NCBI GenBank assembly: GCA_036382775.1
Contig: DASVHD010000035.1
Coordinates: 217,001 to 281,000, forward strand
Reading direction: 5' to 3'
DNA from: a bacterium
Lineage (GTDB): Bacteria; Hydrothermota; Tepidihabitantia; SM23-42; JAOAFX01
Length of the DNA stretch: 64,000 nucleotides
The translations under genes and the position numbers were made by a program. Below the pieces are notes generated by a model. The model was not told the origin of the DNA. It saw only the letters and a program-made list of their open reading frames with translations, and searched no databases. Positions within the stretch are counted from its first letter, which is position 1. Each line of letters opens with the position of its first letter. Below are positions 4,372 through 58,420 of this stretch, piece after piece.

Positions 4372-4376
4372 TCAGT

Positions 4377-4404
4377 ATTTTAACCAATAATGACCGCGTG
4401 TCAA
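4377..4404 (-). promoter_or_regulatory. Leaderless promoter of the Yip1 gene
   Basis: On the minus strand a -35 TTGACA (4404-4399) and -10 TAAAAT (4382-4377) are separated by 16 bp. Only 5 bases separate the -10 box from the ATG at 4371, so transcription should begin at or next to the start codon. Its -35 box is part of a back-to-back arrangement with the promoter of rfbD. Confidence 0.75.
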
Positions 4405-4409
4405 CCCCG

Positions 4410-4437
4410 TTGACACTGTGATTTTAAGGCATATAAT
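4410..4437 (+). promoter_or_regulatory. Leaderless promoter of rfbD
   Basis: Consensus -35 TTGACA (4410-4415) and consensus -10 TATAAT (4432-4437), spacer 16 bp. The GTG start of rfbD at 4443 follows after 5 bases and no Shine-Dalgarno sequence fits in between. The two divergent -35 boxes form a perfect inverted repeat, GTGTCAAC-CCC-GTTGACAC, at 4398-4416. Confidence 0.8.
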
Positions 4438-4442
4438 AACGC

Positions 4443-5297
4443 GTGAAGGTGTTCATAACCGGAGCCGATGGCGCGCTGGGGCAGGAAATGCAGAACATCC
4501 TAAGGGCCGAAAAAGTTAATTTCCTGCCCACGGACATCAATCAGCTCGACATTACTTATTTTAAGAAAGTCAATGAATCGGTCATGGCTTACCGGCCTGA
4601 CGTCATAATCCATTGTGCCGCAATAAGCGACGTCGACGAGTGCGAAAAAACCAAAGATCTGGCATACCGGATCAATGTTCTGGGCACGCTCGGACTGGCG
4701 ATCATAGCAAACAAGATCGATGCTAAGATCGCATATATAAGTACGAATTTCGTCTTTGACGGTAAAGCCGAACAGGCCTATGGCGAATATGACACGGCGA
4801 ACCCCATAAACGAATACGGCCGGACAAAATATCTGGGGGAACAGTGCGTGCGCGACACCTGTGAAAAATACTTTATTATCCGTACCGCCTGGCTCTTTGG
4901 GTTCAATTCCAAGACGTTCGTTTCCAAATTCCTGCAATCAAAGACAAAGCCCTCGTACCTCGACGTTATTTGCGATCAGACCGGTTCTTTTACATATATC
5001 CCGGACCTTGCACGAACGATCCTGTCGCTGATCGTATCAGACCATTATGGCCTTTATCATATCGTGAACTCAGGGCTAGGTACATGGCTCGATTTCATGC
5101 TCCGGGCCAAAGAACTCATGCGGTTCAACACCGAGATCAGACCTGTAAAAACCGAGGAACTCGACCTTGCCGCGCCGCGTCCGAGGTTTGCCGCGCTGGC
5201 GTCAAAAAATTATGAATTTTTATTCGAAAAAAAATTAAGGGTATGGACCGATGCTTTAGCGGATTTCATAAAGTCAATTCAAGGGCCGGGCAAATAA
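4443..5297 (+). CDS. rfbD: dTDP-4-dehydrorhamnose reductase
   Basis: 284 residues of the extended short-chain dehydrogenase fold. It has the Rossmann motif VFITGADGALGQ at the N-terminus, DVIIHCAAISDVDECE (the RmlD nucleotide-binding/substrate region), and the catalytic Y-x3-K in EYGRTKYLGE. It reduces dTDP-4-dehydro-L-rhamnose to dTDP-L-rhamnose with NAD(P)H, the last step of the pathway. It uses a GTG start placed 5 bases after a consensus -10 box. rfbA follows 70 bases later under its own promoter; rfbC and rfbB complete the pathway. The product would feed cell-surface polysaccharide. Confidence 0.93.
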   Translation: MKVFITGADGALGQEMQNILRAEKVNFLPTDINQLDITYFKKVNESVMAYRPDVIIHCAAISDVDECEKTKDLAYRINVLGTLGLAIIANKIDAKIAYISTNFVFDGKAEQAYGEYDTANPINEYGRTKYLGEQCVRDTCEKYFIIRTAWLFGFNSKTFVSKFLQSKTKPSYLDVICDQTGSFTYIPDLARTILSLIVSDHYGLYHIVNSGLGTWLDFMLRAKELMRFNTEIRPVKTEELDLAAPRPRFAALASKNYEFLFEKKLRVWTDALADFIKSIQGPGK

Positions 5298-5332
5298 TGA
5301 AGGCGGCGCTGTTCTCAGAAAGTCATGAAATA

Positions 5333-5360
5333 TTGACTTTCCTCCAACAATCAATATAAT
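5333..5360 (+). promoter_or_regulatory. Leaderless promoter of rfbA
   Basis: -35 TTGACT (5333-5338) and -10 TATAAT (5355-5360) with a 16 bp spacer. The ATG of rfbA is 7 bases after the -10 box, leaving no room for a ribosome-binding site. Confidence 0.78.
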
Positions 5361-5367
5361 TCACGGT

Positions 5368-6435
5368 ATGAAAGGCCTCATCCTTGCCGGCGGTTTTGGA
5401 ACGCGTCTGCGGCCTTTAACATATACCGGGGCAAAACAGCTTATACCGGTAGCCAACAAACCGATAATCATCTACGGTATTGAAGCCCTGGCCCGGGCCG
5501 GTATCAAGGACATTGGCGTTGTCGTGGGTGAAACTGCCGCCGAAGTACAAGCGGCCCTGGGCAATGGCGATCTTTTCAATATCAGGATCACCTATATCCG
5601 CCAGGAGGCGCCGCTGGGCCTGGCGCACGCCATAAAGATCTCCCAAAAATTTTTAGGCAATGATCCTTTTATCATGTACCTTGGCGATAATCTGCTAAAA
5701 CAGGATCTCGCCGAACTGATCACTAAATTCAACAACATGAAATCTGATGCCTTGATCCTGCTGACCGAGGTGCCTAATCCCCAGCAATTCGGGGTCGCAG
5801 TCATCGACAAAAACGGGAAGGTGATAAAACTCATTGAAAAACCCAAGGAACCGCCTTCAAACTATGCTCTCGTCGGTGTCTATTTGTTCAATACCACCAT
5901 ATATAAGGCGATCGACAATATTAAACCGTCATTGCGCAATGAACTGGAAATAACCGACGCCATCCAGTGGCTTCTGGAGAACAAATACAATGTCGCTTCC
6001 GACATTGTGAAGGGCTGGTGGAAGGACACGGGTAAGCCCGAGGACATTATTGAAGCGAACCTCCTGGTCCTGGAATCGATCGAACCTCTCAACGAGGGTG
6101 TAAGCGTTGATTCGGTCATCAACGGACGCGTCCGTATCGAAAAAGGCGCCCGGATCGAAAAGAGCGTGATCCGGGGACCGGTGATCATAGGCCAGGGAGC
6201 GCGCATTATCAATTCCTTCATCGGTCCTTTTTCATCGATCGGGAATAATGCCATTATCGAAAACTCAGAGATCGAATGCAGCGTGGTCATGGAGGGCGCG
6301 AAGATCAAGGATATCGAAAAAAGGATCGACCGCTCGATCATCGGCAAGAACGTCGAGATCAGCCAGGTGGACCAATCGCCGCGCACCTATAAATTCATAG
6401 TGGGCGATCAGAGCAACATTGAACTGGTGAAGTAA
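5368..6435 (+). CDS. rfbA: Glucose-1-phosphate thymidylyltransferase, long form
   Basis: 355 residues. The N-terminal nucleotidyltransferase domain starts with MKGLILAGGFGTRLRPLTYT, the sugar-nucleotide pyrophosphorylase signature, and contains the metal-binding YLGDNLL motif. A C-terminal extension from about residue 250 shows hexapeptide-like periodicity (repeated I/V at six-residue steps, for example VIIGQGARIINSFIG), which predicts a left-handed beta-helix. The long, helix-bearing version differs from the roughly 290-residue enterobacterial RmlA. It makes dTDP-glucose from dTTP and glucose-1-phosphate, the first step of dTDP-rhamnose synthesis. The start is fixed by the leaderless promoter. 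Confidence 0.93.
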   Translation: MKGLILAGGFGTRLRPLTYTGAKQLIPVANKPIIIYGIEALARAGIKDIGVVVGETAAEVQAALGNGDLFNIRITYIRQEAPLGLAHAIKISQKFLGNDPFIMYLGDNLLKQDLAELITKFNNMKSDALILLTEVPNPQQFGVAVIDKNGKVIKLIEKPKEPPSNYALVGVYLFNTTIYKAIDNIKPSLRNELEITDAIQWLLENKYNVASDIVKGWWKDTGKPEDIIEANLLVLESIEPLNEGVSVDSVINGRVRIEKGARIEKSVIRGPVIIGQGARIINSFIGPFSSIGNNAIIENSEIECSVVMEGAKIKDIEKRIDRSIIGKNVEISQVDQSPRTYKFIVGDQSNIELVK

Positions 6436-6450
6436 AGGAAGGAATAGACG

Positions 6451-7449
6451 ATGGATTTCGCAACCAGGGTGTTTGCCAGGAAGCTCTCAGGTATCTTGTT
6501 TGTTATCGTCGCGACCATATTCCTGCCGGTTTCGCTTATTTCCGGAGAAGATGGAGAAGAGACCGTGAAACCGGTCGACGTATATGTGGGTGTTTATGTT
6601 AACCAGATCTTCGATGTGAGCCTCAAGGATAATAAATTCTCGGTTGATTTTTATGTCTGGTTCCGCTGGATCGGGGACAGCGTAAACCCGGTCGAAAGTT
6701 TTGAGGTAGTCAACGGCCGGATGGATTCAAAAAATGGCGTTTACGAGGATGAAATAAAAGGTTACCAGTATGCCAGCTGCCGGGTCGTCGCCACCATGAC
6801 CAAGTTCTGGGATATTTCAAAATTCCCCCTTGATGATCACATCATGACGATCGAGATCGAGGATAACGAAAACGAGGATTTCAAGCTGACGTACATTCCC
6901 GATACCGGGAATTGCGGCATCAATCCCCAGGTGGAAGTACCGGGCTGGAAGGTATCCACCGCCAGCGCCAGCGTTGTCGGCCATTCTTATCAGACGAACT
7001 ATGGCGATATCTCGCTGCCGAGCAACAATGAATCCGTCTATTCCCGTTTCATATATTCCATCGCGGTGGTGCGGCCAGGCTACGGTTATTTTTTCAAGCT
7101 GTTCTTTGGGGTTTTTATCGCGGCCATGATCGCCTTCTTGACGTTCTTTATAAAACCCACTGACCTTGACCCGCGCTTCGGGCTCGGGGTCGGAGCGATA
7201 TTCGCCGCCGTGGCCAGCGAATACGTGATCGCCTCCGCATTGCCCGATACAAATCTCATAACGATGGCGGACAAGCTGCACATCCTGGCGTTCATTTTCA
7301 TCTTTCTTTCCATCGCCGAATCGGTCCTGTCACTCAGGCTTTTCTCAACCGACCGGGAAGGACTGTCAAAGAACCTGGATAAAACATGCTTCATTGTCTT
7401 CATGGCCGTTTACATAATCCTGAGTTTCTTGTTGATTGTACTGCGGTGA
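6451..7449 (+). CDS. Pentameric ligand-gated ion channel homologue (Cys-loop family, prokaryotic type)
   Basis: 332 residues. A signal peptide (about 1-32) is followed by a beta-rich extracellular domain with the family WFRW motif (70-73) and the loop motif WDISKFPLDDH (120-130), which is the cysteine-less prokaryotic version of the Cys-loop with its conserved F-P-x-D. Four membrane helices follow: M1 about 211-234, pore-lining M2 about 243-264, M3 about 270-297, and M4 about 312-331, with only a short M3-M4 loop as in GLIC and ELIC. This is the family of nicotinic, GABA and bacterial channels. It has an AAAGGAAGG-like ribosome site and sits 15 bases after rfbA, so it should be co-transcribed with rhamnose genes. 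Ligand and ion selectivity are unknown. Confidence 0.88.
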   Translation: MDFATRVFARKLSGILFVIVATIFLPVSLISGEDGEETVKPVDVYVGVYVNQIFDVSLKDNKFSVDFYVWFRWIGDSVNPVESFEVVNGRMDSKNGVYEDEIKGYQYASCRVVATMTKFWDISKFPLDDHIMTIEIEDNENEDFKLTYIPDTGNCGINPQVEVPGWKVSTASASVVGHSYQTNYGDISLPSNNESVYSRFIYSIAVVRPGYGYFFKLFFGVFIAAMIAFLTFFIKPTDLDPRFGLGVGAIFAAVASEYVIASALPDTNLITMADKLHILAFIFIFLSIAESVLSLRLFSTDREGLSKNLDKTCFIVFMAVYIILSFLLIVLR

Positions 7450-7492
7450 TGAGTACACATGAGAAAGGGAATATTATCAGGCAGGTAATAAC

Positions 7493-7963
7493 ATGAAAAA
7501 GAAATCGATCATTGATGGCGTCACGGTTAAAAGCCTGCGCTTGATCCCGGATGAACGGGGACGGCTCATGGAGATCTTGCGCCGTGACGATGAACTGTTC
7601 GAGAAATTCGGCCAGGTCTACATGACGACCGCGTACCCGGGCGTGGTCAAAGCCTGGCACTATCACAAGCTCCAGAACGATAACATGACGGTGGTCAAAG
7701 GCATGGCCAAGATCGTGCTCTACGACAACCGGCCCAAAAGTCCGACCAAGGGCGTGATCAATGAATTTTTCGCAGGCGATGACAATCACGTCCTGATCCA
7801 CATCCCGAAACTCATCTGGCATGGTTTCAAGTGCATCAGCAACAAGGAATGCATCATCGTCAACACGGTCACCGAATGCTATGATTATGAAAAACCCGAT
7901 GAATACCGCAAACACCCTCACGATTCCGACATTCCGTACGACTGGAACAGAAAAGATGGCTAG
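7493..7963 (+). CDS. rfbC: dTDP-4-dehydrorhamnose 3,5-epimerase
   Basis: 156 residues with the cupin-like RmlC fold. It contains DERGRLMEILRRDDELFEKF near the N-terminus (the RmlC opening D-x-RG), YPGVVKAWHYHKLQ around the catalytic histidine, the later PKLIWHGF, and a C-terminal tail with the conserved tyrosine region. It epimerises C3 and C5 of dTDP-4-dehydro-6-deoxy-glucose. It is shorter than the roughly 180-residue E. coli enzyme, within the range of short family members. It lies downstream of the ion-channel gene (43-base gap) and upstream of rfbB. Confidence 0.88.
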   Translation: MKKKSIIDGVTVKSLRLIPDERGRLMEILRRDDELFEKFGQVYMTTAYPGVVKAWHYHKLQNDNMTVVKGMAKIVLYDNRPKSPTKGVINEFFAGDDNHVLIHIPKLIWHGFKCISNKECIIVNTVTECYDYEKPDEYRKHPHDSDIPYDWNRKDG

Positions 7964-8179
7964 ACCATCAATTTCTAAATCCGAATTTCTAATTTCTAAA
8001 CAAATCCAAATTTTTCTAATTCAAAATCCAAAACAAAAAAATCCGTTTTTTGAAAATTTGAATTTTATATTTAGATATTGTTTATGTCTCATGCTGAGTA
8101 TTCGACACGAAGCGGGATTTCGGATTTTGAAATTAGAATTTAATACGGAGACGTCAGGTCGACGAAGGATTACAGCACT
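7964..8179 (+). repeat. AT-rich low-complexity intergenic repeat
   Basis: The stretch 7972-8150 is built of degenerate words such as AATTTCTAA, AAATCCAAA and AATTTGAAT, repeated in both orientations (for example near 7972-8050 and at 8122-8145). No gene is visible. This kind of word-repeat spacer differs from the word used at other loci in this window. A GAAGGATT upstream of 8180 may serve as the rfbB ribosome site. Confidence 0.55.
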
Positions 8180-9202
8180 ATGAAGGTACTGATCACCGGC
8201 GGTTGCGGTTTCATCGGTTCGAATTTCATCAAGTATTTCAACAAAAGGTATCCCCATTATAAGATCCTGAACGTCGACAAGCTGACCTACGCCGGCAATC
8301 TCGAGAACCTGAAAGGGCTGGAGAGGAAAAAAAATTATAAATTCGCCCGGGCCGATATCAGTAACGCTTCGATGATGAGAAAGCTGTTCGACAAGTTCAA
8401 TCCTGACTCGGTCATTAACTTTGCCGCCGAAACCCACGTCGACCGGTCCATCCTGAGCCCGGCGCCATTTATCAAGACGAACGTGATCGGCGTGAGCGTG
8501 CTGCTCAACCTTTCGCTGAAGCACAAGGTAAGGCGTTTCGTCCAGATATCGACCGACGAGGTCTACGGCTCCATCCTCCACGGCCGTTTCCGGGAAGACA
8601 GCCCGCTCGATCCTTCCAGCCCTTACGCGGCGAGCAAAGCTTCTTCGGATGCGCTGGTTATGTCCTATTACAAAACGCACCGCTTACCCGTCATCATCAC
8701 CCGCTCATCGAACAACTACGGACCGTACCAGTTCCCGGAAAAATTGATACCGCTGACCATCATCAACGCGCTGACCAACAAGAAAATCCCTGTCTACGGC
8801 GACGGCATGAATATCCGGGACTGGCTTTTTGTCGAAGACAACTGCAGCGCGATCGATTCGGTCTTTCACTCCGGAGAGATCGGCGAGGTCTATAATATCG
8901 GCGGCGAGAATGAGCTGGAAAATCTGTACGTCGTAAAAATGATCGTCCGCATTCTGGGGAAACCAGACAAGCTCATGACGTTTGTTCAGGACCGGCCCGG
9001 GCATGACTGGCGGTATTCATTGTCTTTGAGCAAAATCCGCCGGCACCTGAGCTGGCATCCCTCGACGTCGTTCGAGAGTGGTCTGAAAAAGACCATTGAG
9101 TGGTACAAGAAGAACACCAGATGGATCAAAAGCGCCCAGACCGGCGAATACCGCAACTTCTACGCGAAATACTATTCGCAGCTCGGGCTCGATACCCGCT
9201 GA
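8180..9202 (+). CDS. rfbB: dTDP-glucose 4,6-dehydratase
   Basis: 340 residues, extended SDR. It has N-terminal VLITGGCGFIGSNFIKYF (NAD-binding G-x2-G-x2-G), NFAAETHVDRSI (the RmlB signature), ISTDEVYGS, then YAASKASSDALV with the catalytic Tyr-x3-Lys, and RSSNNYGPYQFPEK downstream. It converts dTDP-glucose to dTDP-4-dehydro-6-deoxyglucose with bound NAD. It is the last gene of the rhamnose cluster, whose order here (rfbD, rfbA, channel, rfbC, rfbB) differs from the enterobacterial rfbBDAC order. Confidence 0.95.
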   Translation: MKVLITGGCGFIGSNFIKYFNKRYPHYKILNVDKLTYAGNLENLKGLERKKNYKFARADISNASMMRKLFDKFNPDSVINFAAETHVDRSILSPAPFIKTNVIGVSVLLNLSLKHKVRRFVQISTDEVYGSILHGRFREDSPLDPSSPYAASKASSDALVMSYYKTHRLPVIITRSSNNYGPYQFPEKLIPLTIINALTNKKIPVYGDGMNIRDWLFVEDNCSAIDSVFHSGEIGEVYNIGGENELENLYVVKMIVRILGKPDKLMTFVQDRPGHDWRYSLSLSKIRRHLSWHPSTSFESGLKKTIEWYKKNTRWIKSAQTGEYRNFYAKYYSQLGLDTR

Positions 9203-44749: not shown

Positions 44750-46078
44750 CTATTCCATGATATTTTTCCTGCTCAGGAGTTCAAACTCGCTGACCGCGGT
44801 TTTTTCCTTGCCGCTCAGCAGATCAGTATCCCGCGCGACCACAATATAGTTCCCGGCAGGCAGGTCCATGGGATGATACTTTGCGGGCAGGTAGGCGATA
44901 TCGCCCTCCCCTGATTCATCCTGGATAAGGACATCCAGAATCTCCCTTTTCATGCGCTCCTTGCTGTAGATCTCATAAGTGGTCCGCAACTGATGCCGGC
45001 CACCACTGGTCTGCAGGTTATACAGTTCGTGGTAGAAATAAAAAGGGACGTTGACCTCGGTCGCGGCCTGGGTCATGGGGATGACCCGGCCTACGGGTTT
45101 GCTGAACCGCTCGTCGGTAAATGACTCATCGATGAGACGCGCGGCGATAAGATCGCTGATCTCCTTCGCATCGGCGGCATACTCAAGGAGATCGACCGTG
45201 AATTCTTCTCTACCGACCAGCTTATTTTTCAGGTCTGCCAGTTCCAGAGTGATCCGGTATACTTTAGGTTCAAGCCAAAAATTCGATTGGTCACAGAAAA
45301 TGCCGGAATCCCCGTTCTGCGGGTACACGATCTTCTCTTTCTCGCTGATCAGGCTGTCCAGATCGTTGAACACCTTGATCATCCGGCAGAATTTAAGCCC
45401 GGTCGTGTCCTTTACCGGCACGTTGATGTACAGTTCCAACCGCGTCAGGTTCATTTTTTGCCGGAACCGACCGATCGCCGCGCTATAATCAAGTACCCCC
45501 ACGGAATCGAACGACGCCGGCACGGGGATCGTGTCCTCTTTCAGATAGGGCAATTTCACAGCATCGCCGAACTCGCTTTTGACCAGGATCTTGTATGCCC
45601 GGGCGATGCGGATGAAATCAAACTCCAGCCCCGCGCTCCGGTAGGACCAGATCTCAGCGGGCCGCACAACTTCTTTGGCCGTTATCATTATCAACTTCTG
45701 CGGGGATATTTCCTGGCGCCGGGACGGCGGGCCGTATTTCACGTACGTCGACAAACGCTCATCGCTAAGGGGCGCGTTCGCGCCGAACGTTCGAAACGCG
45801 TACATGGTGCGTTCTTCAAAATCCATCCTTGCGCTGTCCTTGTCGCGCCAATAGCTATCATACAGAAAACGTCGGTCCGCGGCCGAAGGGGTGTTGAGGT
45901 ATTCCATGGCGAATGTTGTATCGATCGAGCGTAAACCCAGGAACACCGAGCGTTCTTGCTCAAGCAGGCGGTAATACCGTGCGCCGAGGATATTCGATGC
46001 GCAAGCCGCCATTACCAGCATCGCCAGAAGACAGTATCGAACTAATTTCCTTCCATCTTTCATGTTTTTTATGATCAT
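44750..46078 (-). CDS. GWxTD-domain protein (second of pair)
   Basis: 442 residues. An N-terminal membrane segment (about 14-30, YCLLAMLVMAACASNILGA) is followed by the family start 'sv..R.f..DSYWRDKD' (FLYDSYWRDKDSARMDFEER) and a region YVKYGPPSRRQEISP that corresponds to the GWxTD core with its Y-G-P-P. A beta-rich C-terminal half follows. GWxTD proteins are predicted secreted or membrane proteins of unknown function in FCB-group bacteria. It lies 12 bases downstream of a second GWxTD gene. Confidence 0.75.
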   Translation of the reverse strand: MIIKNMKDGRKLVRYCLLAMLVMAACASNILGARYYRLLEQERSVFLGLRSIDTTFAMEYLNTPSAADRRFLYDSYWRDKDSARMDFEERTMYAFRTFGANAPLSDERLSTYVKYGPPSRRQEISPQKLIMITAKEVVRPAEIWSYRSAGLEFDFIRIARAYKILVKSEFGDAVKLPYLKEDTIPVPASFDSVGVLDYSAAIGRFRQKMNLTRLELYINVPVKDTTGLKFCRMIKVFNDLDSLISEKEKIVYPQNGDSGIFCDQSNFWLEPKVYRITLELADLKNKLVGREEFTVDLLEYAADAKEISDLIAARLIDESFTDERFSKPVGRVIPMTQAATEVNVPFYFYHELYNLQTSGGRHQLRTTYEIYSKERMKREILDVLIQDESGEGDIAYLPAKYHPMDLPAGNYIVVARDTDLLSGKEKTAVSEFELLSRKNIME

Positions 46079-46090
46079 GACCGCGCCTTT

Positions 46091-47287
46091 CTATTCTTCG
46101 TTCCCGGGCCCGGGGAAATCCCGGAGAAAATCGTCTTCAACATTGACATTACCCCTCATATCATAATCGCCGTCGCCGTCGCTGTCAACAAAGAGAATGC
46201 TCAAACCGCGCGTGTGGTAGTGCCACACCTGGGACGGATCACCGGTCGCTTCCATCGGTCGATATTCAATTTCATCCGGAGGACCATTGAGGATATAATA
46301 CTTGCCAAGGTGCGTCCGGCGGCCGATGATATTGGAGGTGGAAAATTGCGCGTCGGCTTCCATAAGCCGTTCTTCGAACTGTTTGTAATCGTGCCGCGAC
46401 CAGAATTTGTCTAAATATTTCTTTTTTACCGACAGGTCAAGATCGCAAAACTGCCGATACTCGTCGGCCGATAAAAAAACGTCGATCTCAAAAGCGTAAG
46501 TCATAGCGTCAAGATCAATGCTCAATGCCCTTTCTTTGACATCCAGGGAATGGCTCTTCGTGACCATCTTGTTCAGCACCGGCTCATAGATCGCCACGTG
46601 GACCTTGTATGGCCCCGGTCGTATGTCACCCACTGCGATAAAGGCAGTATCGATCTGGCGAAAATCGTACTTCAGCCGTTTTTCATCACGGGAAAAGACG
46701 ATCGCACCCGCGGTGTCGACGATGATATATCGAACCGTGAAATAAAGGCTGTCCGGGATCAATCCATATGCTTCGGTATATACCATCATGGTGTCACGCG
46801 GCGCGAATTCAGGAGCCAGCAGCGGGGTCAACTCGACCCCTTCACGGGCGAAATGCAAGATGGCTTGCACCTTTTCTGAAAGGATCAGATCGCTGCACGT
46901 GAACGCGACCGTGTCCGAAAAGATCTCAAGCTCGCCATTTTTCTCGGCATGATCGCCGGAAGCGTCGATATCCAGTTGATACCGGTACTGGCCGGCGCCG
47001 AGAAAAACCGGGATAAAATCTATCAGGTAATCGCTTTTTCGGGTTGGATCAACGGTTGCGCTTTTCATGCCTTCATGAACCGCCGAATCTGCGCTGCTCT
47101 TGGAATGAACGACCAGTCGGTAATGGTATTTTTTAGTTACGTTCGGCCGGGCGCTCTCCAGTTCCTCAAAGGAAAAAATATCAGCGGCCGGCAGCGTATA
47201 CCAGATCTCTGAATATCCCTGGTCAAAGCGGTACGCCTCGCAGTTCAAGCTAAGTGCTGGTAAGACATAAAGGATCAGTATGCCCAT
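46091..47287 (-). CDS. GWxTD-domain protein (first of pair)
   Basis: 398 residues from the ATG at 47287 (an in-frame ATG three codons earlier lies almost on the -10 box). A signal peptide (about 1-15) is followed by a beta-rich region and the GWxTD core: KKKYLDKFWSRHDYKQFEER, then GRRTHLGKYYILNGPPDEIE and PSQVWHYHTRGLSILFVD. The W and G-P-P motifs are clear; the glycine of GWxTD is replaced by G-R-R. The two proteins probably act as partners at the envelope. Confidence 0.8.
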   Translation of the reverse strand: MGILILYVLPALSLNCEAYRFDQGYSEIWYTLPAADIFSFEELESARPNVTKKYHYRLVVHSKSSADSAVHEGMKSATVDPTRKSDYLIDFIPVFLGAGQYRYQLDIDASGDHAEKNGELEIFSDTVAFTCSDLILSEKVQAILHFAREGVELTPLLAPEFAPRDTMMVYTEAYGLIPDSLYFTVRYIIVDTAGAIVFSRDEKRLKYDFRQIDTAFIAVGDIRPGPYKVHVAIYEPVLNKMVTKSHSLDVKERALSIDLDAMTYAFEIDVFLSADEYRQFCDLDLSVKKKYLDKFWSRHDYKQFEERLMEADAQFSTSNIIGRRTHLGKYYILNGPPDEIEYRPMEATGDPSQVWHYHTRGLSILFVDSDGDGDYDMRGNVNVEDDFLRDFPGPGNEE

Positions 47288-47298
47288 CGCGTTCATTT

Positions 47299-48108: not shown

Positions 48109-48443
48109 GGTATAACGCAGATGAATCGGAACGGCTTATCTGAAGCGTTCACAAAGCCGTGCTGATCGCCGGTCAGGACCAGCAGCGCATCACCAGCGCG
48201 GACCACCTGGTCCGCGCCGGTTGACTTGAGAATAGCCTCGCCTTCGACGATAAACATCTCGTGTTCGGTATCGGCGTGGCTATGTAGCGGGATCTCGCCG
48301 CCGGGCGCGATCGTAAATATTCGCATTGCGCAGTGCGGAGCCCCGTCCTTCTTGGTTATCAGCCATTGCAGGACCACAGCCTTTGTGCCCTTCATGGCCG
48401 GGGTCTCTTTTGGGATCTCTGATAAATGCTTGATTACCATCAC
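48102..48443 (-). CDS. Small cupin-domain protein
   Basis: 113 residues, single cupin barrel. The metal-binding motifs are IPLHSHADTEHEMFIVEGEA (H-x-H-x(3-4)-E) and GDALLVLTGDQHGFVNASD (with the second His). Likely a mononuclear metal enzyme or binding protein; no specific substrate. The start ATG overlaps the stop of the alpha-2-macroglobulin gene (48440-48443), which makes it the second gene of that operon. Confidence 0.85.
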   Translation of the reverse strand: MMVIKHLSEIPKETPAMKGTKAVVLQWLITKKDGAPHCAMRIFTIAPGGEIPLHSHADTEHEMFIVEGEAILKSTGADQVVRAGDALLVLTGDQHGFVNASDKPFRFICVIPV

Positions 48444-51400
48444 AGCCCTACTTCCATCAGGAACGGCTCGGCGATCGCCTCATCCTGGGTATTGTAGTAT
48501 TCATAGACCCGCGATGACATTACCTGGGCCTTGATCGGGTATTTTGCCTTGATGCTGTAAGACAGCGCCACGGGTTTGACAGAATCGATCTCTTCCAAGT
48601 AGATTATGATCTGCCGCGATGTTAGACTGTACTTCTGGATCTCTTTGCCGACATGCTCGTCAAGGGTCGGCGTCTCGACCGAGAATCCAGGCGGCAGCCC
48701 AAGATCGATCATGACCATTTGCGCCTTACCCGGCTTGTTCAGCTTGATCTTTACATCGACGTTGACCATGTCATTGATCATGAGTTTGGTGCGGTCGTAC
48801 TTGACGTCGATCGCGAACATCGGGATCGGAGGCCTGGGCAGGTTTTTCCACGGGATATAATAGGAGCTCGCGATCTCGTAAAGGAAGCTTCCCTCACCCT
48901 TGACCGTGATCTCGACCGAGTTATCGCTGCCCGCCTTGGCCAGGTAACCGGTCAGATCGACCTGCTGCATGACATCGGCGTTAGTCTTGTCAACGCTCAG
49001 TTCGTCGACCTGCTTACCGTTCGCCTTCACGATGATCCTGGCATTGATATCCTCGGACGCGCCGCCCATCGCTGCGATCAACGTGCGCAAGCAGATGATC
49101 GTGCCCTGGGTAGTGTACCACATGCCGTTGGCGTCTTTGGACCGGATGATGTAGGTCAGGACCTTGTTCACCGTATCGCTGAATTTTCCGGACTTCACCA
49201 GCGCATAAGCGGCAAGCCCGGTCGCCTCGATATCCGCGCCGTTGCCCCGGCTGAAAGTCACTGACGGGATCTCCGACTCCCACCAGACCACGTCCTTTTC
49301 CTGTTTGGCTTTTTCAATGAGCTTTTTGCAGACCTCGACCGTCCGCTCAGACTTGGGCTCGGCTGCGACAAAAGCATTGGCGACCAAGGCCAGCACATAC
49401 GGATCCTTGGCGGACGCGAGGTTCTTGTACAGATAATCGAGCCCGCGCGATACTTCGTTCCCCTTGTCGCCGATCTCGCCGAGAGCCCAGCAGATATATG
49501 CGGTCGGCATCAGCTCGCTGTGCTGGATCCTGCCCCATGATTCCTCGTGCAGGTATGATGGATCAGGAGCCCAGGAACCGTTCTTGTCCTGTTGATCTTT
49601 CAGCCATTGAGCGGTCCGCTGGATCACGCGCTCGTCGGTCTCGTAAACCTTCGACATATCGTGGAACTCCATGACGCCATACGCGGTCAGGATCTTGTTG
49701 GCCGGCGCGTCGCCGAACCACGAGAAACCGCCGCCGCTCACCTCGAACGAAAGCAGCCGTTGATAGCCGACGCTTATATACTGTTCGGCCGTCATTTCGG
49801 TCTCGGGTTTAATCTGCTCGGTCTGACGCAGGTAGTTCAGGATCAAGATATTGGGGTAGGTCACGGACGATGTTTGCTCAAAGCACCCGTACGGCATGCC
49901 CAGCATCTTGTCCAGTCCTTCGACAACCTGGGAGTAGATGCCCGGGTAGATCCTGAGATAGAGCTTGTTGGCTTCCGCTATCGCGTTGTCTGGAAATGCC
50001 ACGGTCTTTGCCACCGCGCCTTCGAGCCGGTCTGATATGATCGCGTCGAACCTCTTGCCGTCGGGCAGGACCTCGATGCTGCGCTTGATCGCGTCCGACT
50101 TCGCCTCGCCGTACGCCTTCACGGTCAGAGCATTGACGCCCAGCTTTTTAACCCGGATCGGGAAATAGACCACGCTCACTTCGTCCTTATTTAGCGTCTT
50201 TGATATCTCGCTCTTTTCCAGGATATCGAACCAATCACCGGTCTCCAGTTCGACCTTGATGGTCTGCTTCTTGGGCAAATAATTGTAGAGCGCGACCGGT
50301 ATCGATATTTCATCGCCCTGGGTCAACGCGACCGGCAGGTCGATGTCGGCGAAAAATTCCTGGAAAACCTTGATCTGGGACAGAAGCGAACCGAGCTCGC
50401 CATTCTGGCTGGAACCAAAAGCGGTCAGGCGCCACGTCGTTATCGCATCCGGCATGGTTACCGGTAGGGTCGCCTTTCCGGCGTAGTCGGTTATCAACGC
50501 CGGTTCGAATATGAAAGTCTCGGGAAAATACTCACGCACCCGCGGCTCGCCCGGACCGCCCTTATCCTTGTCGCGGCTGCGGTCATCCATCGTCGCGCTC
50601 TTTGCCATTGCTCGCTTTTCCATGCGCGGCGGCGCTCCGGCTGCCGCCATGGGCATTGCCATCTCAGCCTCGTCGAACATGATGTCACCGCGTCCTCCGC
50701 CCCAGCCCCATTCGGTTATATCGTCGGCATTGTCGAACGCGCCGTCAGGACCCGCGCACGCGAGCGTAAAATAAGAGAAGTATTCGTTGCCCTCTGGTAT
50801 GGTGACGCGGTACTTGCGCATCCATGGATCATAAAGGTCTTTTCCCTTGAGCATTCCCTCTTCGATCAGAACGGCTATGCCGTCTTCGGTTTTGGGATAT
50901 TGATTGTGCTTTTCGTAATATTTATTGATCGCTCCATATATGTTATCCCGCGCCTGGTAGAGCCGGTTGTAGAACGCGGAATAGACCTTTTCGTTCACTT
51001 CCAAAGGGGTCGTGTAGTTGACCGGGAAAGGTTCCTTCGGCACCAGGGTCGAGAACATCACGTTCTCGGCGCGCGGTTCGATCGGTCCCTTTTTAACGAT
51101 GTTTGCCGGTTCAAAACCGTGGATCTCGTAGCGCGGCTCCATGATTTCTTTTTCAAGCATGAAATATACTTTTTCCAGGCCCGGCTGCAGTTCAGACACC
51201 GCGAATACCGCTTCGTCGACGATCGCCACGCACAATGCCGCGATCCTGGGTTTTCCCGCCCGGTCGGTTACCGTGAACAGAATGTTACCGTCCTCGCCGG
51301 GCAGGTACTCGTTCTTATCGGGTTTGACATTGATCACAAGATCGTTCGCCGGGTGCACGAAGCAGAACCGCGTATCGCGGATAATATCGCTGCCTGGCGT

Positions 51401-53182
51401 GACGATGTACGCGTGCAGCCAGATCGAACCGCTCAGGTCAGAGCCCAGGTAAAGCTTGTGCGTACCTTTACCAGCACTGATCGCGACCGACTTGGTCAGC
51501 ACGGTCTGGTTGTCTTTGATAATATCAAGGTACACGCGGCCGGCTTTCTTGGTTGTGAAGAACTGCAGGTCTATTGATTCGCCGACCTTGAAGATGCCGC
51601 GTGCCATGCGCATGATGATCTGATCGCGGTCGACATCGAGCGAGAACTCCTTTTTCAAACTTGCGGATTCGCCCTTACTGTCGGTCACACGCACGTCGAG
51701 TTTGACCTGGTTGTTCTTGGGCGTGCATAAGAATTCGGCGATCCCGAACTCATCGGTCTTGGCCGGGACCATCTTCGCGCCATCGATCTCCATTTCCACC
51801 TGCGCCGTGCACGGCGAGCCGTCCGGATAATTGGCCAGGACGTAAAGCCGGTTCTCAAGGCCGGGCTTAAGCGCACCGCCCTCAGGCACGACCGATATGG
51901 TTATGATGTCCTGGACGACCTTTTTGGTCAAGCTGACTTTTTCGCTGTGGTTCGCTTTGTCGATGACCTCGATATCCAGCCGGACAAAGGCATCGCCTTT
52001 TTCCAGTGGTTCGCCCACGAAATACCCGGGCAGTTTGTACTCAAAATGGTACAGGCCGCTCGTCGCAGTCGCTCCTTCGATGACACTCTCTTCGTTAAAT
52101 CCGACATCGAACCTGTAAACCGAAATTTTTACCTTGCCCTCGGCAACCGGCTTGCCGAAGAAGTACTGCACGTCGACGTCGCCGGTCATCTTTTCGCCGG
52201 GGAGGTAGAATTCTTTGTCCGTCTTGAGCGAGATCTTGAACTTGGGCAGGACGTATTTCTCGACCTTGACCGTTTTTTCTATTTTCTCGCCGTCCACGAT
52301 AGAGCGGATCGTGTAGTTGCCGAAATTCACCTCGTCGGCAAGCAGGAACTGCACGTAGCCTACGCCGAATTCATCGGTCTTGTTTGTTTTCTTGAACACC
52401 TTGTTGCCCTTGCTGTCTTCCACTTCGAAAACCAGTTCTTTTTCTTTCACCGCGGAAAGCTCGGGTTTATGCAGGGACAGGGTCCTGATATGTACGGTTT
52501 GGCCGGGCTGGTATATGGGTTTATCCGTCACCAGATAGGTCATGTTGCCGGTCAGAACCTTGATGCTGGTGTTGAAAGTATCGCGACCGACATCAGAAGT
52601 CACGTCGAAATAAACCGAAGCCTGTTCCACGTTGTCGGGGATGTCAAATACCGTGTTGCACGTGCCGGAATTATCGGTCACGCCGTCGAACACGTCCTTT
52701 TTAATTTCATTGTCGCCGCTTGAAGCCTCGATCATAACCCTGATCCTGGCGCTGCTGATCGGCTCGTTGCTGCGCTGGTTCTTCACGATGATCCGGAAAT
52801 TCGCCGGCGTCCCCTTGATGAACTCGTTCTGGCCGAGGATCTTGACGATCATCCGGTCCTGGAGTTGGAATAATGAATAGACCGTGACGTCTCTTTTAAA
52901 GGTGACGCGTACCCTCAGCAGATCAAGATCTTCGACGCTCTCTTTCATTGTCACGGTGATGGGCAGGCTATAGTTTTCTTTTTTCACATACACAAACTTG
53001 GAAGCCGTACCCACGACGCTGTCCTGGGGATCGATAAGCTCAACCTTGCGCTTGCCGAGCTCACCCTGGTACTCGCCCAGGGGGATATTCAGACGCATTT
53101 CATTATCGGTCTTGGACATGGCAATGCCCACGACCAAAACCATGATCCCGATAATAAAGGTTGCTGATAAAAATTTAGCCAT
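48440..53182 (-). CDS. Alpha-2-macroglobulin family protein with a pseudopilin-like insert
   Basis: 1580 residues. A signal peptide (about 1-22) without lipobox Cys is followed by several macroglobulin beta domains, including TYLVTDKPIYQPGQTVHIRT (MG2). About residues 735-820 resemble the GspG C-terminal domain: YPKTEDGIAVLIEEGML (from Tyr762), then DPW (785-787), AGPDGAFDNADDITEW. A Met/Ala/Asp-rich linker follows. REYFPETFIFEPALITD at about 884 begins the post-bait region. The thioester motif PYGCFEQTSS (Cys1100, Gln1103) is intact. A2M proteins trap proteases cutting the bait region. No PbpC partner is present, unlike the common E. coli type. The cupin gene overlaps the 3' end. SD AAGGAGG. 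Confidence 0.93.
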   Translation of the reverse strand: MAKFLSATFIIGIMVLVVGIAMSKTDNEMRLNIPLGEYQGELGKRKVELIDPQDSVVGTASKFVYVKKENYSLPITVTMKESVEDLDLLRVRVTFKRDVTVYSLFQLQDRMIVKILGQNEFIKGTPANFRIIVKNQRSNEPISSARIRVMIEASSGDNEIKKDVFDGVTDNSGTCNTVFDIPDNVEQASVYFDVTSDVGRDTFNTSIKVLTGNMTYLVTDKPIYQPGQTVHIRTLSLHKPELSAVKEKELVFEVEDSKGNKVFKKTNKTDEFGVGYVQFLLADEVNFGNYTIRSIVDGEKIEKTVKVEKYVLPKFKISLKTDKEFYLPGEKMTGDVDVQYFFGKPVAEGKVKISVYRFDVGFNEESVIEGATATSGLYHFEYKLPGYFVGEPLEKGDAFVRLDIEVIDKANHSEKVSLTKKVVQDIITISVVPEGGALKPGLENRLYVLANYPDGSPCTAQVEMEIDGAKMVPAKTDEFGIAEFLCTPKNNQVKLDVRVTDSKGESASLKKEFSLDVDRDQIIMRMARGIFKVGESIDLQFFTTKKAGRVYLDIIKDNQTVLTKSVAISAGKGTHKLYLGSDLSGSIWLHAYIVTPGSDIIRDTRFCFVHPANDLVINVKPDKNEYLPGEDGNILFTVTDRAGKPRIAALCVAIVDEAVFAVSELQPGLEKVYFMLEKEIMEPRYEIHGFEPANIVKKGPIEPRAENVMFSTLVPKEPFPVNYTTPLEVNEKVYSAFYNRLYQARDNIYGAINKYYEKHNQYPKTEDGIAVLIEEGMLKGKDLYDPWMRKYRVTIPEGNEYFSYFTLACAGPDGAFDNADDITEWGWGGGRGDIMFDEAEMAMPMAAAGAPPRMEKRAMAKSATMDDRSRDKDKGGPGEPRVREYFPETFIFEPALITDYAGKATLPVTMPDAITTWRLTAFGSSQNGELGSLLSQIKVFQEFFADIDLPVALTQGDEISIPVALYNYLPKKQTIKVELETGDWFDILEKSEISKTLNKDEVSVVYFPIRVKKLGVNALTVKAYGEAKSDAIKRSIEVLPDGKRFDAIISDRLEGAVAKTVAFPDNAIAEANKLYLRIYPGIYSQVVEGLDKMLGMPYGCFEQTSSVTYPNILILNYLRQTEQIKPETEMTAEQYISVGYQRLLSFEVSGGGFSWFGDAPANKILTAYGVMEFHDMSKVYETDERVIQRTAQWLKDQQDKNGSWAPDPSYLHEESWGRIQHSELMPTAYICWALGEIGDKGNEVSRGLDYLYKNLASAKDPYVLALVANAFVAAEPKSERTVEVCKKLIEKAKQEKDVVWWESEIPSVTFSRGNGADIEATGLAAYALVKSGKFSDTVNKVLTYIIRSKDANGMWYTTQGTIICLRTLIAAMGGASEDINARIIVKANGKQVDELSVDKTNADVMQQVDLTGYLAKAGSDNSVEITVKGEGSFLYEIASSYYIPWKNLPRPPIPMFAIDVKYDRTKLMINDMVNVDVKIKLNKPGKAQMVMIDLGLPPGFSVETPTLDEHVGKEIQKYSLTSRQIIIYLEEIDSVKPVALSYSIKAKYPIKAQVMSSRVYEYYNTQDEAIAEPFLMEVGL

Positions 53183-53387
53183 GACTCCTCCTTATGTTTG
53201 TTATTGCATGATTTTTTGCGTATTTTTGACGTTTTGTCATATATTTTTGCTCATTTTATATCTGATAATACAAACTCGGTCTGTAAATATTCCCAATGCA
53301 TGGAATTTGATATATTTTACGATCAAATCCAACTTAGTATTATAAATAACCTGATCTCAAAGTCAACATGCCGGATCGGTCCGGCGC

Positions 53388-53415
53388 TTGACAGACACTG
53401 CTTGCCATGTAAAAT
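53388..53415 (+). promoter_or_regulatory. Leaderless promoter of the YafK gene
   Basis: -35 TTGACA (53388-53393), 16 bp spacer, -10 TAAAAT (53410-53415). The ATG at 53423 follows after 7 bases. Confidence 0.72.
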
Positions 53416-53422
53416 AGCCTCA

Positions 53423-54193
53423 ATGAGATTATTAAATAAACAACAGACGGCCGTCACGGTCACTGGTATCTTGATCATCCTGGTGGCTGTTCTTAATGGA
53501 CAAGCTTCGTTCAAAAACCAACAAAACCAGTATTCGCGCGTACATGATACGCGGGAACGGTGCGAGCCGCTGATACGACAACTTTTTGACAGCATAAACA
53601 TTGATTATCCGCCGTATCGCATCCTTATCCGCGGCTTCAAACAGGAGCAGGTCCTTGAACTCTGGGCGCAGAACGATTCATCATCATTGTTTACACACAT
53701 AAAGACCTACCCTTTCACCGGCTTTTCCGGCGTTTTGGGTCCTAAAAGAAAACAGGGCGACCTGCAAATCCCTGAGGGGTTTTACCAGATCATAAATTTC
53801 AACCCCTGGTCAGAGTTCCATTTATCTTTGCGGCTCAATTATCCCAATCGCTCGGACAGCATCCTGGGCGAGCGCGGCAACCTGGGCGGACGGATCCTGA
53901 TCCATGGCATGTCCTGCACCATCGGCTGCATCCCGATCGGCAATGAAGCGATCGAGGAACTTTATATCATCGGCGTGGACACAAGATCTGCCGGTCAAAA
54001 ACGGATACCCGTTTATCTTTTCCCGGCAGTCATGGACAGCTCAGGCATGGCCGGTCTGACCGAGTACGCGTCCACAGACACGACCCTGATGGATTTCTGG
54101 GATAATTTAAAACAGGGTTATGATGTTTTTAAAAAATATCACCGTTTATTAAAATTTCATGTAGACCGAAACGGCCAATATATTTTTGATTGA
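53423..54193 (+). CDS. L,D-transpeptidase of the YafK (YkuD) type
   Basis: 256 residues. Signal anchor at about 8-25, then RILIRGFKQEQVLELWAQND and the YafK core: DLQIPEGFYQIINFNP, LSLRLNYPNRSDSILG and the catalytic IHGMSCTIGCIPIG, where HG...S.GC holds the catalytic His and Cys. YafK-type enzymes hydrolyse or form links between murein and envelope proteins such as Lpp. The start is fixed by the leaderless promoter. It stands between the A2M operon and a methyltransferase gene. Confidence 0.88.
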   Translation: MRLLNKQQTAVTVTGILIILVAVLNGQASFKNQQNQYSRVHDTRERCEPLIRQLFDSINIDYPPYRILIRGFKQEQVLELWAQNDSSSLFTHIKTYPFTGFSGVLGPKRKQGDLQIPEGFYQIINFNPWSEFHLSLRLNYPNRSDSILGERGNLGGRILIHGMSCTIGCIPIGNEAIEELYIIGVDTRSAGQKRIPVYLFPAVMDSSGMAGLTEYASTDTTLMDFWDNLKQGYDVFKKYHRLLKFHVDRNGQYIFD

Positions 54194-55687: not shown

Positions 55688-58420
55688 TCAAGGACCTGCT
55701 GTCTTATGATAGGTATAGGTCGCAGCCAACCCTTGCATTGATTTGTTTTCTGCGATTGCATCGTGCGGAATGAGCAAATAAGACCATGGTTTTCCGCCAT
55801 GTTTCTGCGCATGGGCGGTTGCGTGAACGCACCATGCCGCGGCGGCTTTGGCTTTGACCAACACTTCTGCATCGTTCATCTCATTCGCGGCCTTCACTTC
55901 ACATACGAACTTCGCCGTCTTGGTCTCGACCACGAAGTCCGGTTCGTAAGATGCTTCGCCGGCGTAGTGAATCGGGAGGTCACCCCTGGCGGGCTTGAAC
56001 CACTTAAGCACTTCCTTGTCATTTTCCAGGACAACCGCGAAACGACGCTCGGAGTCCGAATCGAACTTCTGGATCCGGTACAGGCACTTGCCGAATCCGG
56101 CAAACAGCATCTTCCGGATGTCTTGCTTATCGGAAACCGGCGCGCGGTAGTTCCGCTCGGTTTCCCCGGCAGGGACCAAGTAGTTGTTGGGCCGGAGCGT
56201 CGTGAAGCCCCTGCTCACGTGTGCCTCATAATCCGCCGCCTTCTCCTCGTAGTGGTCCTGCATCTGGCCGTGGACTAGATTGACCAGCGTCTGCTGGTGA
56301 TACTGCAGAACGTTGAGCACTTCTGCCTCGTTCTTGAGGTACGACCGGAGATGTGCGACGACCTGCCTCCCCAGTCCATAAAGCAACGCCGAATGATCGT
56401 CGTAACAGATATCATTGAAATCCATAAGGCCCCGCACAAGGTAGTCTTCGAGGTTTTCCTCGGGCACGATGCCGGTGCCACTCAAGAGGCGGTGCTGTTC
56501 CCTTCGGTGCAATTCCTGGATGAGAATCTCGTTGTCCACCGGCTCAGGTCGCACTGCCGCGAGGTCGAGTTGGAATTCCCGGTATCGCCGCGTCACACCG
56601 CCGACTGGCTGAACCGTGATGCGGGGAATATCAATCGAAAACTCGGTCCACATCGTGATGGTCTTGGCCACGACATCATCCATGTTAACCGGCTCGACGA
56701 TCCCCTCCAGTTCCTTCTGTACCGAGGTGATCATTTCTTTCACCTTCTCGGTTATCTGCTTCATGATCTCCGGCTTGGTTAGGTCGGCAGAGACTGGCAG
56801 GTGTTCAAACCCCTGATGGATCACATCCTGAGTGATCTTTGCCGCCTCCCGTTCTCGCGTGGTCACAAAACTCGATGGCCTTTCCCTCGCCACCAATGCC
56901 TGACCGCTGTTGGCTGACGGCTCATAGCTGATCACTGAAGGTTGAATCCGATTCACTGTCTCCGGCTCGACCACCATGACTCTGGGCCTCTCATCGCCGA
57001 TATAAACAACTTTCATACCACCCCGGATGATCGAATCAGGGCTGTTGGCATAATCCACGATCTCCTGGAACTTGTCGTGCGAGACAATAGTCAGGCGGTC
57101 AACCACCGCCACTCCGGTGCGCTTCCCATAAGGCAGACGTAAACCACGTCCGATTGATTGTTCCACCAACGTCTTCGAGTTGGCAGCGCGGAGTGGAACA
57201 ATGGTATAGAGGTTGGTGACGTCCCAACCTTCCTTGAGCATATTCACGTGGATGACGATTTCGGTCACGTTGTCCGGCTTCTCCACATTAATGAGCCTCT
57301 CGATGGTCTCATCCCTCTCCTCGCCGCTCTGCATGGAATGAACCTGGATGACTTTCCCCTTGTATCGCCCCTCGAAGAAAGCCTCGTCCTCGATGATCTT
57401 CATGAGCGCATCGGCATGCCCGGTATCACGCGCAATAACAAGCATGAACGGCTTCACCGCTGACCTTCCGCTTTCGCGGGCATAAACCTCCAGTTCGGCT
57501 TTCGTGTTCTCGTGAATCCTGACTCCATCCTCGAGTTTCAATCGCTCTAAGCCGACATCATCGTAGTTCTTCGCCTCGAAGTTCTCGCGTGTTGCCACCG
57601 CGGGTTCCTTGACGAACCCATCCGTCATAGCGTTAGAGAGCGGGTAAGCGTAGATAACATTCCGGAACGGCTGGGTCCCACCACCGCGTTCCACATGCGG
57701 TGTAGCCGTAAGTTCCAAACCAAGGATAGGTTTTAACTCGCTGATGGCTTTCATACCCGCCGATGCCCGATAACGGTGGGACTCATCCATGAGCAACACC
57801 AGATCATCAAGCTTCGCGAGGAAGTCGAAATAACTCTGGCCAATACACTCCTGAAGCCGTCGGAAACGCGGAATACTGCTCTTGGCCGCTCCCTTTGGCG
57901 TTTCTGTACTGGTAATTTTCGATACATTGAATATGTTAACATGTACCCTTTCGTCCGTGCCGAAGAGTGTTTTTACCCGAAGCCCGCGGCCGCTCTCGAA
58001 GTTGTCACCGGTGATGATCTCCGGCGGTTCCACGGCGAAATCGGCGATGCCTTGGAACACATACTTGGGCGTGTTGGGCGTGAAGTCGGTGACAAGCTTG
58101 TTATAGATGGTCAGGTTCGGGGCAAGCACGAAAAAATGCCGAATGCTCTCGGCTTTGAAGAGATACGCGATGAATGCACCCATCAGTCTGGTCTTACCCA
58201 CACCAGTCGCTAATGCAAAGCAAAGCGAAGGGAAATCCCGCTCGAAGTCGGTTACCGTCGGGAATTCGACCTGGATCACCTTGACCGCTTCGGTAACATC
58301 GGCGTTTTTCTCCAGGGGAATGAGATCGCAGACCCTAGCGAGAATCTCCAGGGACTCGCGCTGAGGCGCACGCAGGCTGAGCCGGTTAGCAATTGTGTTG
58401 ACATGCGGGTTTATTATGAT
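55688..58420 (-). CDS. Type III restriction endonuclease Res subunit (DEAD/SNF2-like helicase + nuclease)
   Basis: About 910 residues. Helicase motifs: Walker A ATGVGKT at about 70 (LCFALATGVGKTRLMGA), DEAD-type MDESH at about 210, LTATPH; C-terminal PD-(D/E)xK nuclease YEPDFVVETK...VCEVKAANEM (about 827-845). Start: the conserved lead NTIANRLSLRAPQRESLEIL lies upstream of the first GTG (58279), so translation must begin earlier. No ATG or GTG is available in that frame after the upstream stop; ATC (58420) or ATA (58417), following GGAAGGGG, are candidates, so the start is a non-AUG codon or needs another mechanism. It overlaps the DUF1016 gene stop. An in-frame repeat occurs at 56898-56923. 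Confidence 0.85.
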   Translation of the reverse strand: MIINPHVNTIANRLSLRAPQRESLEILARVCDLIPLEKNADVTEAVKVIQVEFPTVTDFERDFPSLCFALATGVGKTRLMGAFIAYLFKAESIRHFFVLAPNLTIYNKLVTDFTPNTPKYVFQGIADFAVEPPEIITGDNFESGRGLRVKTLFGTDERVHVNIFNVSKITSTETPKGAAKSSIPRFRRLQECIGQSYFDFLAKLDDLVLLMDESHRYRASAGMKAISELKPILGLELTATPHVERGGGTQPFRNVIYAYPLSNAMTDGFVKEPAVATRENFEAKNYDDVGLERLKLEDGVRIHENTKAELEVYARESGRSAVKPFMLVIARDTGHADALMKIIEDEAFFEGRYKGKVIQVHSMQSGEERDETIERLINVEKPDNVTEIVIHVNMLKEGWDVTNLYTIVPLRAANSKTLVEQSIGRGLRLPYGKRTGVAVVDRLTIVSHDKFQEIVDYANSPDSIIRGGMKVVYIGDERPRVMVVEPETVNRIQPSVISYEPSANSGQALVARERPSSFVTTREREAAKITQDVIHQGFEHLPVSADLTKPEIMKQITEKVKEMITSVQKELEGIVEPVNMDDVVAKTITMWTEFSIDIPRITVQPVGGVTRRYREFQLDLAAVRPEPVDNEILIQELHRREQHRLLSGTGIVPEENLEDYLVRGLMDFNDICYDDHSALLYGLGRQVVAHLRSYLKNEAEVLNVLQYHQQTLVNLVHGQMQDHYEEKAADYEAHVSRGFTTLRPNNYLVPAGETERNYRAPVSDKQDIRKMLFAGFGKCLYRIQKFDSDSERRFAVVLENDKEVLKWFKPARGDLPIHYAGEASYEPDFVVETKTAKFVCEVKAANEMNDAEVLVKAKAAAAWCVHATAHAQKHGGKPWSYLLIPHDAIAENKSMQGLAATYTYHKTAGP
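56898..56923 (-). repeat. In-frame repeat insert in the Res gene
   Basis: 26 bases encoding EPSANSGQA within the Res protein. It matches at 22 of 26 positions a repeat encoding EPSAISGQA in the neighbouring mod gene (59671-59696). See the mod entry. Confidence 0.6.

What the first reader, a model, noticed from the sequence alone, without database searches (positions are those of the whole stretch)
48440..53182. Alpha-2-macroglobulin with a GspG-like domain at the bait region
About residues 735-820 contain, in order, N-x-YPKTEDGI, DPW, YFSYF and AGPDG.....DDITEW, the hallmarks of the C-terminal domain of the type II secretion major pseudopilin GspG. In A2M proteins this position, before the thioester domain, is where the protease bait lies. 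The bait may have been replaced or extended by a pseudopilin-like module plus a Met/Ala/Asp-rich linker, which would change which proteases or partners trigger it. The thioester CFEQ is intact and no lipobox or PbpC partner is present.
Basis: partly seen in the sequence, partly recalled or inferred. Interest (0 to 1): 0.78.

Follow-up and report, generated by a model that had tools for sequence, protein, structure and literature searches.

The report
Pseudopilin domain inside bacterial macroglobulin bait
A bacterial relative of our blood protein alpha-2-macroglobulin, which traps proteases, carries a calcium-binding secretion-pilus (GspG-type) domain next to its protease-sensing bait, and the same arrangement occurs in a whole clade of such proteins across several bacterial phyla, apparently undescribed.

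Summary
The 1580-aa ORF at 48440-53182 (-) is a complete alpha-2-macroglobulin (A2M) with thioester CFEQ. Residues ~726-826 hold a GspG-like domain: Pfam T2SSG is over its cut-off, the only significant solved-structure matches are GspG, and a confident AlphaFold model matches GspG first.

It is not a local oddity. All same-order orthologues that cover the site have it. So does nearly every sampled member of an A2M clade about 35-50% identical over its length, in several phyla (Armatimonadota, Hydrogenedentota, Planctomycetota, Poribacteria, Acidobacteriota, Myxococcota and others). Other A2Ms, including the genome's second one, lack it.

'Bait replaced' is wrong in one respect. The likely bait is still there, as a hypervariable, disordered Ala/Gly/Met-rich linker (827-879) between the GspG domain and a strictly conserved alpha'NT plug (R883, F886, matching human R732, F735). 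The GspG domain sits between LNK and bait, the slot that complement C3 fills with its anaphylatoxin domain. Its calcium loop and core are conserved; its helix is not.

Best reading: a protease trap whose bait is mounted on a calcium-stabilised pseudopilin fold. The domain's exact role is inferred. New variant of a known family.

The parts
48440..53182 (-). A2M gene (P0001, 1580 aa), domain order MG2-MG3-MG4-BRD-[LNK-GspG-linker-plug]-MG7-TED-RBD
53114..53182 (-). residues 1-23, hydrophobic N-terminal signal sequence, no lipobox cysteine
   Evidence: sequence; no signal-peptide predictor was run
52238..52255 (-). MG2-MG3 linker YVLPKF (residues 310-315), homologous to the human A2M channel segment around F224-V225-L226
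   Evidence: near-invariant in the diverse set; channel role from PMC9352918
51200..51598 (-). Pfam A2M_BRD (residues 529-661)
50978..51190 (-). LNK-like segment (residues 665-735), LQPGLEKVYFMLEKEIMEPRYEIHG..., highly conserved
50705..51007 (-). GspG-like (T2SSG) domain, residues ~726-826: alpha1-C-like helix, DPW, small beta sheet, calcium loop
50720..50752 (-). putative Ca2+ loop GPDGAFDNADD (residues 811-821), PERCAL/GspG type
   Evidence: D813 54/55, D820 53/55, D821 52/55 in the diverse set; Ca2+ binding of this motif from PMC3396595
50546..50704 (-). hypervariable Ala/Gly/Met-rich linker (residues 827-879), predicted disordered; proposed bait region
50516..50545 (-). alpha'NT plug PRVREYFPET (residues 880-889); R883 and F886 align with human A2M R732 and F735
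50246..50518 (-). MG7 / Pfam A2M (residues 889-979)
49079..49933 (-). thioester domain (residues 1084-1368)
49874..49885 (-). thioester motif CFEQ (residues 1100-1103); CFEQ in all 51 intact homologues that cover it
48470..48727 (-). receptor-binding domain (residues 1486-1571)

Best explanation
This is a secreted A2M-type protease trap of the CD109/A2ML1-like class. [quoted passage not shown] The exported protein folds with its alpha'NT segment (PRVREYFPET) threaded through the MG2-MG3-LNK channel. The Ala/Gly/Met-rich linker just before this plug is the bait. The GspG domain, held rigid by Ca2+, is the N-terminal mount of the bait: it projects and bounds the bait, and after a cut it stays attached to the N-terminal half. 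A protease that cuts the linker frees the plug, the channel collapses, and the CFEQ thioester is exposed and captures the protease covalently. Shown here: domain identity, position, conservation pattern, intact thioester and plug. Inferred: Ca2+ binding in this protein, bait cleavage, and the mounting or Ca2+-stabilising role of the GspG domain.
For: Complete A2M domain set and thioester (CFEQ in 51 homologues). GspG identity by Pfam (40 of 51 homologous segments match T2SSG), PDB profile search and fold (model pLDDT 79, 88-97 over most of the helix and core; three GspG chains rank first, then type IV pilins). Plug residues matching human R732 and F735 are 53/53 invariant and the channel segment YVLPKF is near-invariant. 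The linker after the domain has 22% pairwise identity and varies in length, against 64% for the plug and 60% for MG7; it is enriched in A, G and M, predicted disordered (residues 827-887, pLDDT <50), and holds hydrophobic, small and acidic residues in 51/51 and K/R in 50/51 homologues, as a broad-spectrum bait should. Within the GspG domain the Ca2+ loop and core (D785, W787, G811, D813, D820, D821) are nearly invariant while the helix is only 21% identical, which fits a role of the fold rather than a conserved binding face. The clade holds together in a tree, with the GspG-less A2Ms outside it.
Against: No biochemistry on any member was found or could be done. The structure model of the wider region (residues 500-985) has low overall confidence (pTM 0.35), so how the domain packs on the body is unknown. 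The conserved Ca2+ loop could be inherited fold stability without any regulatory role. One family member (L026/L095) has lost the Ca2+ loop but keeps plug and linker, so Ca2+ is not essential everywhere.
Confidence: 0.55

Rival explanations
1. The GspG-like domain is a binding or targeting module. It docks the A2M onto type IV or type II pilus machinery, a cell-surface partner or a class of proteases, so that the bait is presented where needed.
For: GspG domains polymerise and contact secretion partners (established knowledge). The own genome has type II/IV-type ATPases and a secretin. The site accepts other modules: a dockerin-like one in L092 and a CarboxypepD_reg domain in L100.
Against: Apart from the Ca2+ loop and fold core, the domain is poorly conserved (helix 21% identity). 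The N-terminal hydrophobic alpha1-N needed for pilus assembly is absent. The own genome has no other T2SSG match at E <= 1 and no neighbour is conserved across phyla.
Confidence: 0.25
2. Complement-like release: the GspG domain is freed or unmasked on cleavage and signals or binds elsewhere, as C3a does.
For: Same slot as the anaphylatoxin domain of C3, just N-terminal to the alpha'NT segment (slot described in PMC9352918).
Against: In complement the domain is cut at its N-terminus by furin before activation. Here no conserved basic processing site precedes the domain (alignment), so a single cut in the linker leaves it attached.
Confidence: 0.1
3. A chance match or local artefact: the motifs are ordinary A2M sequence, or a recent fusion in one assembly.
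For: Single-sequence scores are modest (Pfam 22.6 bits; NCBIfam GspG below its cut-off).
Against: The same domain at the same place in 40 of 51 homologues by Pfam, PDB profile E 4e-11 to GspG only, fold match, and presence in a whole order.
Confidence: 0.01

Closest known systems
Human CD109 / alpha-2-macroglobulin / A2ML1
   Same: Same domain order, plug (VRKYFPETW against VREYFPETF), channel segment and thioester domain; MG7-TED E 1e-52 to CD109 and 5e-47 to A2M.
   Different: CFEQ thioester in this clade; a folded GspG-like domain of ~100 aa between LNK and bait; bacterial.
Complement C3/C4/C5 (anaphylatoxin domain)
   Same: A folded domain of similar size inserted in the same slot, directly before alpha'NT.
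   Different: Unrelated fold (anaphylatoxin is all-helical, established knowledge); no conserved N-terminal processing site; a disordered bait is retained.
E. coli / Salmonella A2M (YfhM, ECAM type)
   Same: Bacterial A2M with thioester, TED and MG domains.
   Different: Lipoprotein genetically coupled to PbpC (established knowledge), no GspG domain, only weakly similar (E 3e-6 over MG7-TED). The own genome carries a separate A2M with CLEQ.
GspG / PulG major pseudopilin of the type II secretion system
   Same: Globular domain with DPWG motif and Ca2+ loop G-P-D-G-x-x-[GN]-[TN]-x-D-D; profile and fold matches.
   Different: No prepilin leader or hydrophobic alpha1-N; embedded in the middle of a 1580-aa protein.

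Membership tests
Alpha-2-macroglobulin family (TEP superfamily) | MG2, MG3, BRD, A2M/MG7, TED and RBD domains in order | tested here: met
   Pfam, all over cut-off; same core order in six homologues from other phyla
Alpha-2-macroglobulin family (TEP superfamily) | Thioester CxEQ | tested here: met
   CFEQ at 1100-1103, in all 51 intact homologues covering it
Alpha-2-macroglobulin family (TEP superfamily) | alpha'NT plug and MG2-MG3 channel residues (human R732, F735, F224-L226) | tested here: met
Alpha-2-macroglobulin family (TEP superfamily) | Variable, protease-accessible bait before the plug | tested here: inconclusive
   Hypervariable, predicted disordered linker; actual cleavage not testable here
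Alpha-2-macroglobulin family (TEP superfamily) | Protease-triggered conformational change and trapping | not testable with these tools
   needs protein
GspG/T2SSG globular domain | Sequence profile match over the curated cut-off | tested here: met
GspG/T2SSG globular domain | Pseudopilin fold | tested here: met
   Top three fold hits are GspG chains, prob 0.98-1.00, TM 0.52-0.58, E only 0.01-0.05
GspG/T2SSG globular domain | Ca2+-coordinating aspartates | tested here: met
   D813, D820, D821 conserved; metal binding itself not tested
Type II secretion major pseudopilin (functional GspG) | Prepilin leader and hydrophobic alpha1-N for membrane insertion and assembly | tested here: not met
   Domain is internal; NCBIfam GspG 15 bits against an 88.85 cut-off; so not a pseudopilin
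ECAM / YfhM-PbpC type bacterial A2M | Lipobox, adjacent PbpC | tested here: not met
   No cysteine in the signal sequence; no PbpC identified among the neighbours scanned
Complement C3-type | Anaphylatoxin domain with N-terminal furin-type site | tested here: not met
   The domain is GspG-like; no conserved basic site before it

The most novel reading that the evidence does not exclude
Several bacterial phyla carry a CD109-like, complement-like protein in which a pseudopilin domain occupies the anaphylatoxin slot and works as an active effector: a Ca2+-gated docking or signalling module unmasked by proteolysis. Bacteria and animals would then have independently placed a folded domain in the trigger site of the same molecular trap.
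Probability: 0.15. Interest if true: 0.85.

Novelty: new variant of a known kind. Interest (0 to 1): 0.62.

Why it matters
Bacterial A2Ms are known mainly from the E. coli/Salmonella lipoprotein type. This clade looks much more like human CD109 and A2M, is widespread in uncultivated phyla, and is marked by a domain that no paper found here reports in A2Ms. It offers a natural experiment on what the trigger site tolerates, a direct parallel to the anaphylatoxin domain of complement, and a possible Ca2+ control on a protease trap. It also shows that a GspG match in a genome need not mean a type II secretion system.

Tried and rejected
Chance match: rejected by family-wide profile and fold evidence. 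Lineage-specific insertion: rejected, since the domain is in several phyla. Only the isolated PERCAL Ca2+ loop (PMC3396595, known from peroxidases) rather than a GspG domain: rejected, because helix, YP and DPWG segments align with GspG as well. A conserved neighbour giving a partner: none found across phyla. Literature on A2M with a T2SSG/pilin domain: none found in the held library; only open-licence papers are held, and public domain-architecture listings could not be consulted. Structure of residues 500-985: overall confidence too low to place the domain on the A2M body. A tree with metazoan sequences was not built; the closeness to CD109 rests on E-values only.

Full report
What is there. 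The ORF at 48440-53182 on the minus strand encodes 1580 residues with a signal sequence, no lipobox cysteine and the full A2M domain set: MG2 215-299, MG3 309-362, MG4 (weak), BRD 529-661, A2M/MG7 889-979, TED 1084-1368, RBD 1486-1571. Pfam T2SSG matches residues 747-825 over its curated cut-off (E 5.8e-7 on the piece alone). phmmer of the piece finds GspG structures first. An AlphaFold model of 716-836 from 22 orthologues is confident over the helix and core (pLDDT 88-97) but not at its ends. Foldseek ranks three GspG chains first (TM 0.52-0.58, E 0.01-0.05), followed by type IV pilins.

How widespread. All same-order orthologues that cover the site carry the domain. A scan of 84,980 species genomes, seeded on the LNK (PRYEIHG) and plug (FFPETF) peptides and so not on the domain itself, returned 72 loci. 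By record titles they come from WOR-3/Stahlbacteria, Cloacimonadota, Armatimonadota (Chthonomonas, Zipacnadia, Hebobacteria), Hydrogenedentota, Planctomycetota, Poribacteria, UBP4, Acidobacteriota, Omnitrophota, Myxococcota and others; titles of metagenome bins can be wrong. In 55 aligned proteins D785 and G811 are invariant, W787 and D813 are 54/55, D820 53/55, D821 52/55. Of 51 segments, 40 match T2SSG by Pfam, and their profile hits only GspG entries significantly in the PDB (3g20 E 4.2e-11). A profile search of 147 genomes of the phylum found strong matches (E < 1e-15) only in frames of 820-1667 aa, the A2Ms. In the window's own genome PF08334 has this single match.

Outside the clade. More distant A2Ms of the same class (L028, L030, L031) go from a short LNK to a plug without the domain. 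The genome's second A2M and others with CLEQ/CVEQ thioesters lack the GPDG motif. A tree of MG7-TED puts the GspG-bearing proteins on one side of a well-supported branch. Long branches and a midpoint root mean this shows clustering, not a dated single gain. L026/L095 has a decayed copy without the Ca2+ loop. The thioester is CFEQ in all 51 intact clade members that cover it.

Where the domain sits. The segment after it, 827-879, is hypervariable (22% pairwise identity, length varying), rich in Ala, Gly and Met and predicted disordered. It is followed by PRVREYFPET, which aligns with human A2M VRKYFPETW. R883 and F886, matching human R732 and F735, are 53/53 invariant, and the MG2-MG3 channel segment YVLPKF is near-invariant. 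In human A2M the alpha'NT segment threads through the MG2-MG3-LNK channel, and its retraction after bait cleavage triggers the conformational change; in complement a folded anaphylatoxin domain occupies the same slot (PMC9352918). The GspG domain is therefore inserted between LNK and bait, and the trigger machinery looks intact.

Calcium. The loop GPDGxxxTxDD is the motif shown to coordinate Ca2+ in GspG (3g20: D117, D125 side chains) and to bind Ca2+ as a peptide (PMC3396595). PulG crystallised without calcium misfolded at this end (PMC6692295). Loop and core are the conserved parts of the inserted domain; its helix is only 21% identical. This suggests selection on a Ca2+-stabilised fold more than on one binding surface. 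Ca2+ binding by this protein is inferred.

Mechanism. Best reading: an A2M protease trap with the bait mounted on the GspG domain. Cleavage in the linker frees the plug and exposes the thioester; the GspG domain stays on the N-terminal fragment, because no conserved processing site precedes it. Rivals: a docking module, which the poor conservation outside loop and core speaks against, and a released C3a-like fragment, which the missing N-terminal site speaks against. The slot accepts further modules: a dockerin-like one in L092 (sub-threshold) and a CarboxypepD_reg domain in L100.

Relation to animal A2Ms. MG7-TED of this protein matches human CD109 at 1e-52 and A2M at 5e-47 but E. coli YfhM only at 3e-6. 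The GspG-less L028 matches both types about equally (1e-20). A proper phylogeny was not made.

Novelty. No paper in the held library joins macroglobulin with T2SSG or a pilin domain. Automatic domain listings may already show the combination. Verdict: a genuine, conserved architectural variant of A2M, not a new system; the role of the domain is open but testable.

Noticed in passing
L092, A2M ORF residues ~975-1050 (locus 3848-8944 +): Armatimonadetes homologue with a dockerin type I-like module in the bait slot after the GspG domain (PF00404 E 6e-4, just below cut-off).
   Followed up: partly
L100, A2M ORF in the bait slot: Blastocatellia homologue with a CarboxypepD_reg domain inserted in the same slot (E 4e-18).
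   Followed up: partly
L026/L095 (G040:C144): Homologue with a degenerate GspG-like domain: helix and DPYG kept, GPDG and DD lost.
   Followed up: partly
G000:C19:8258-9088 (L133): The genome has a second A2M of the E. coli-like type (thioester CLEQ, ORF >1800 aa) without the GspG domain.
   Followed up: partly
window 53198-54193 +: Divergent neighbour upstream of the A2M with a sub-threshold YkuD L,D-transpeptidase match (20.6 against 23.4 bits).
   Followed up: no
window 44750-47296 -: Two adjacent secreted-looking proteins, one with a weak GWxTD-domain match.
   Followed up: no
window 55688-58279 -: Type III restriction enzyme Res-like helicase with an endonuclease domain; it contains a SANSGQAL stretch whose DNA occurs once in the window.
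   Followed up: partly
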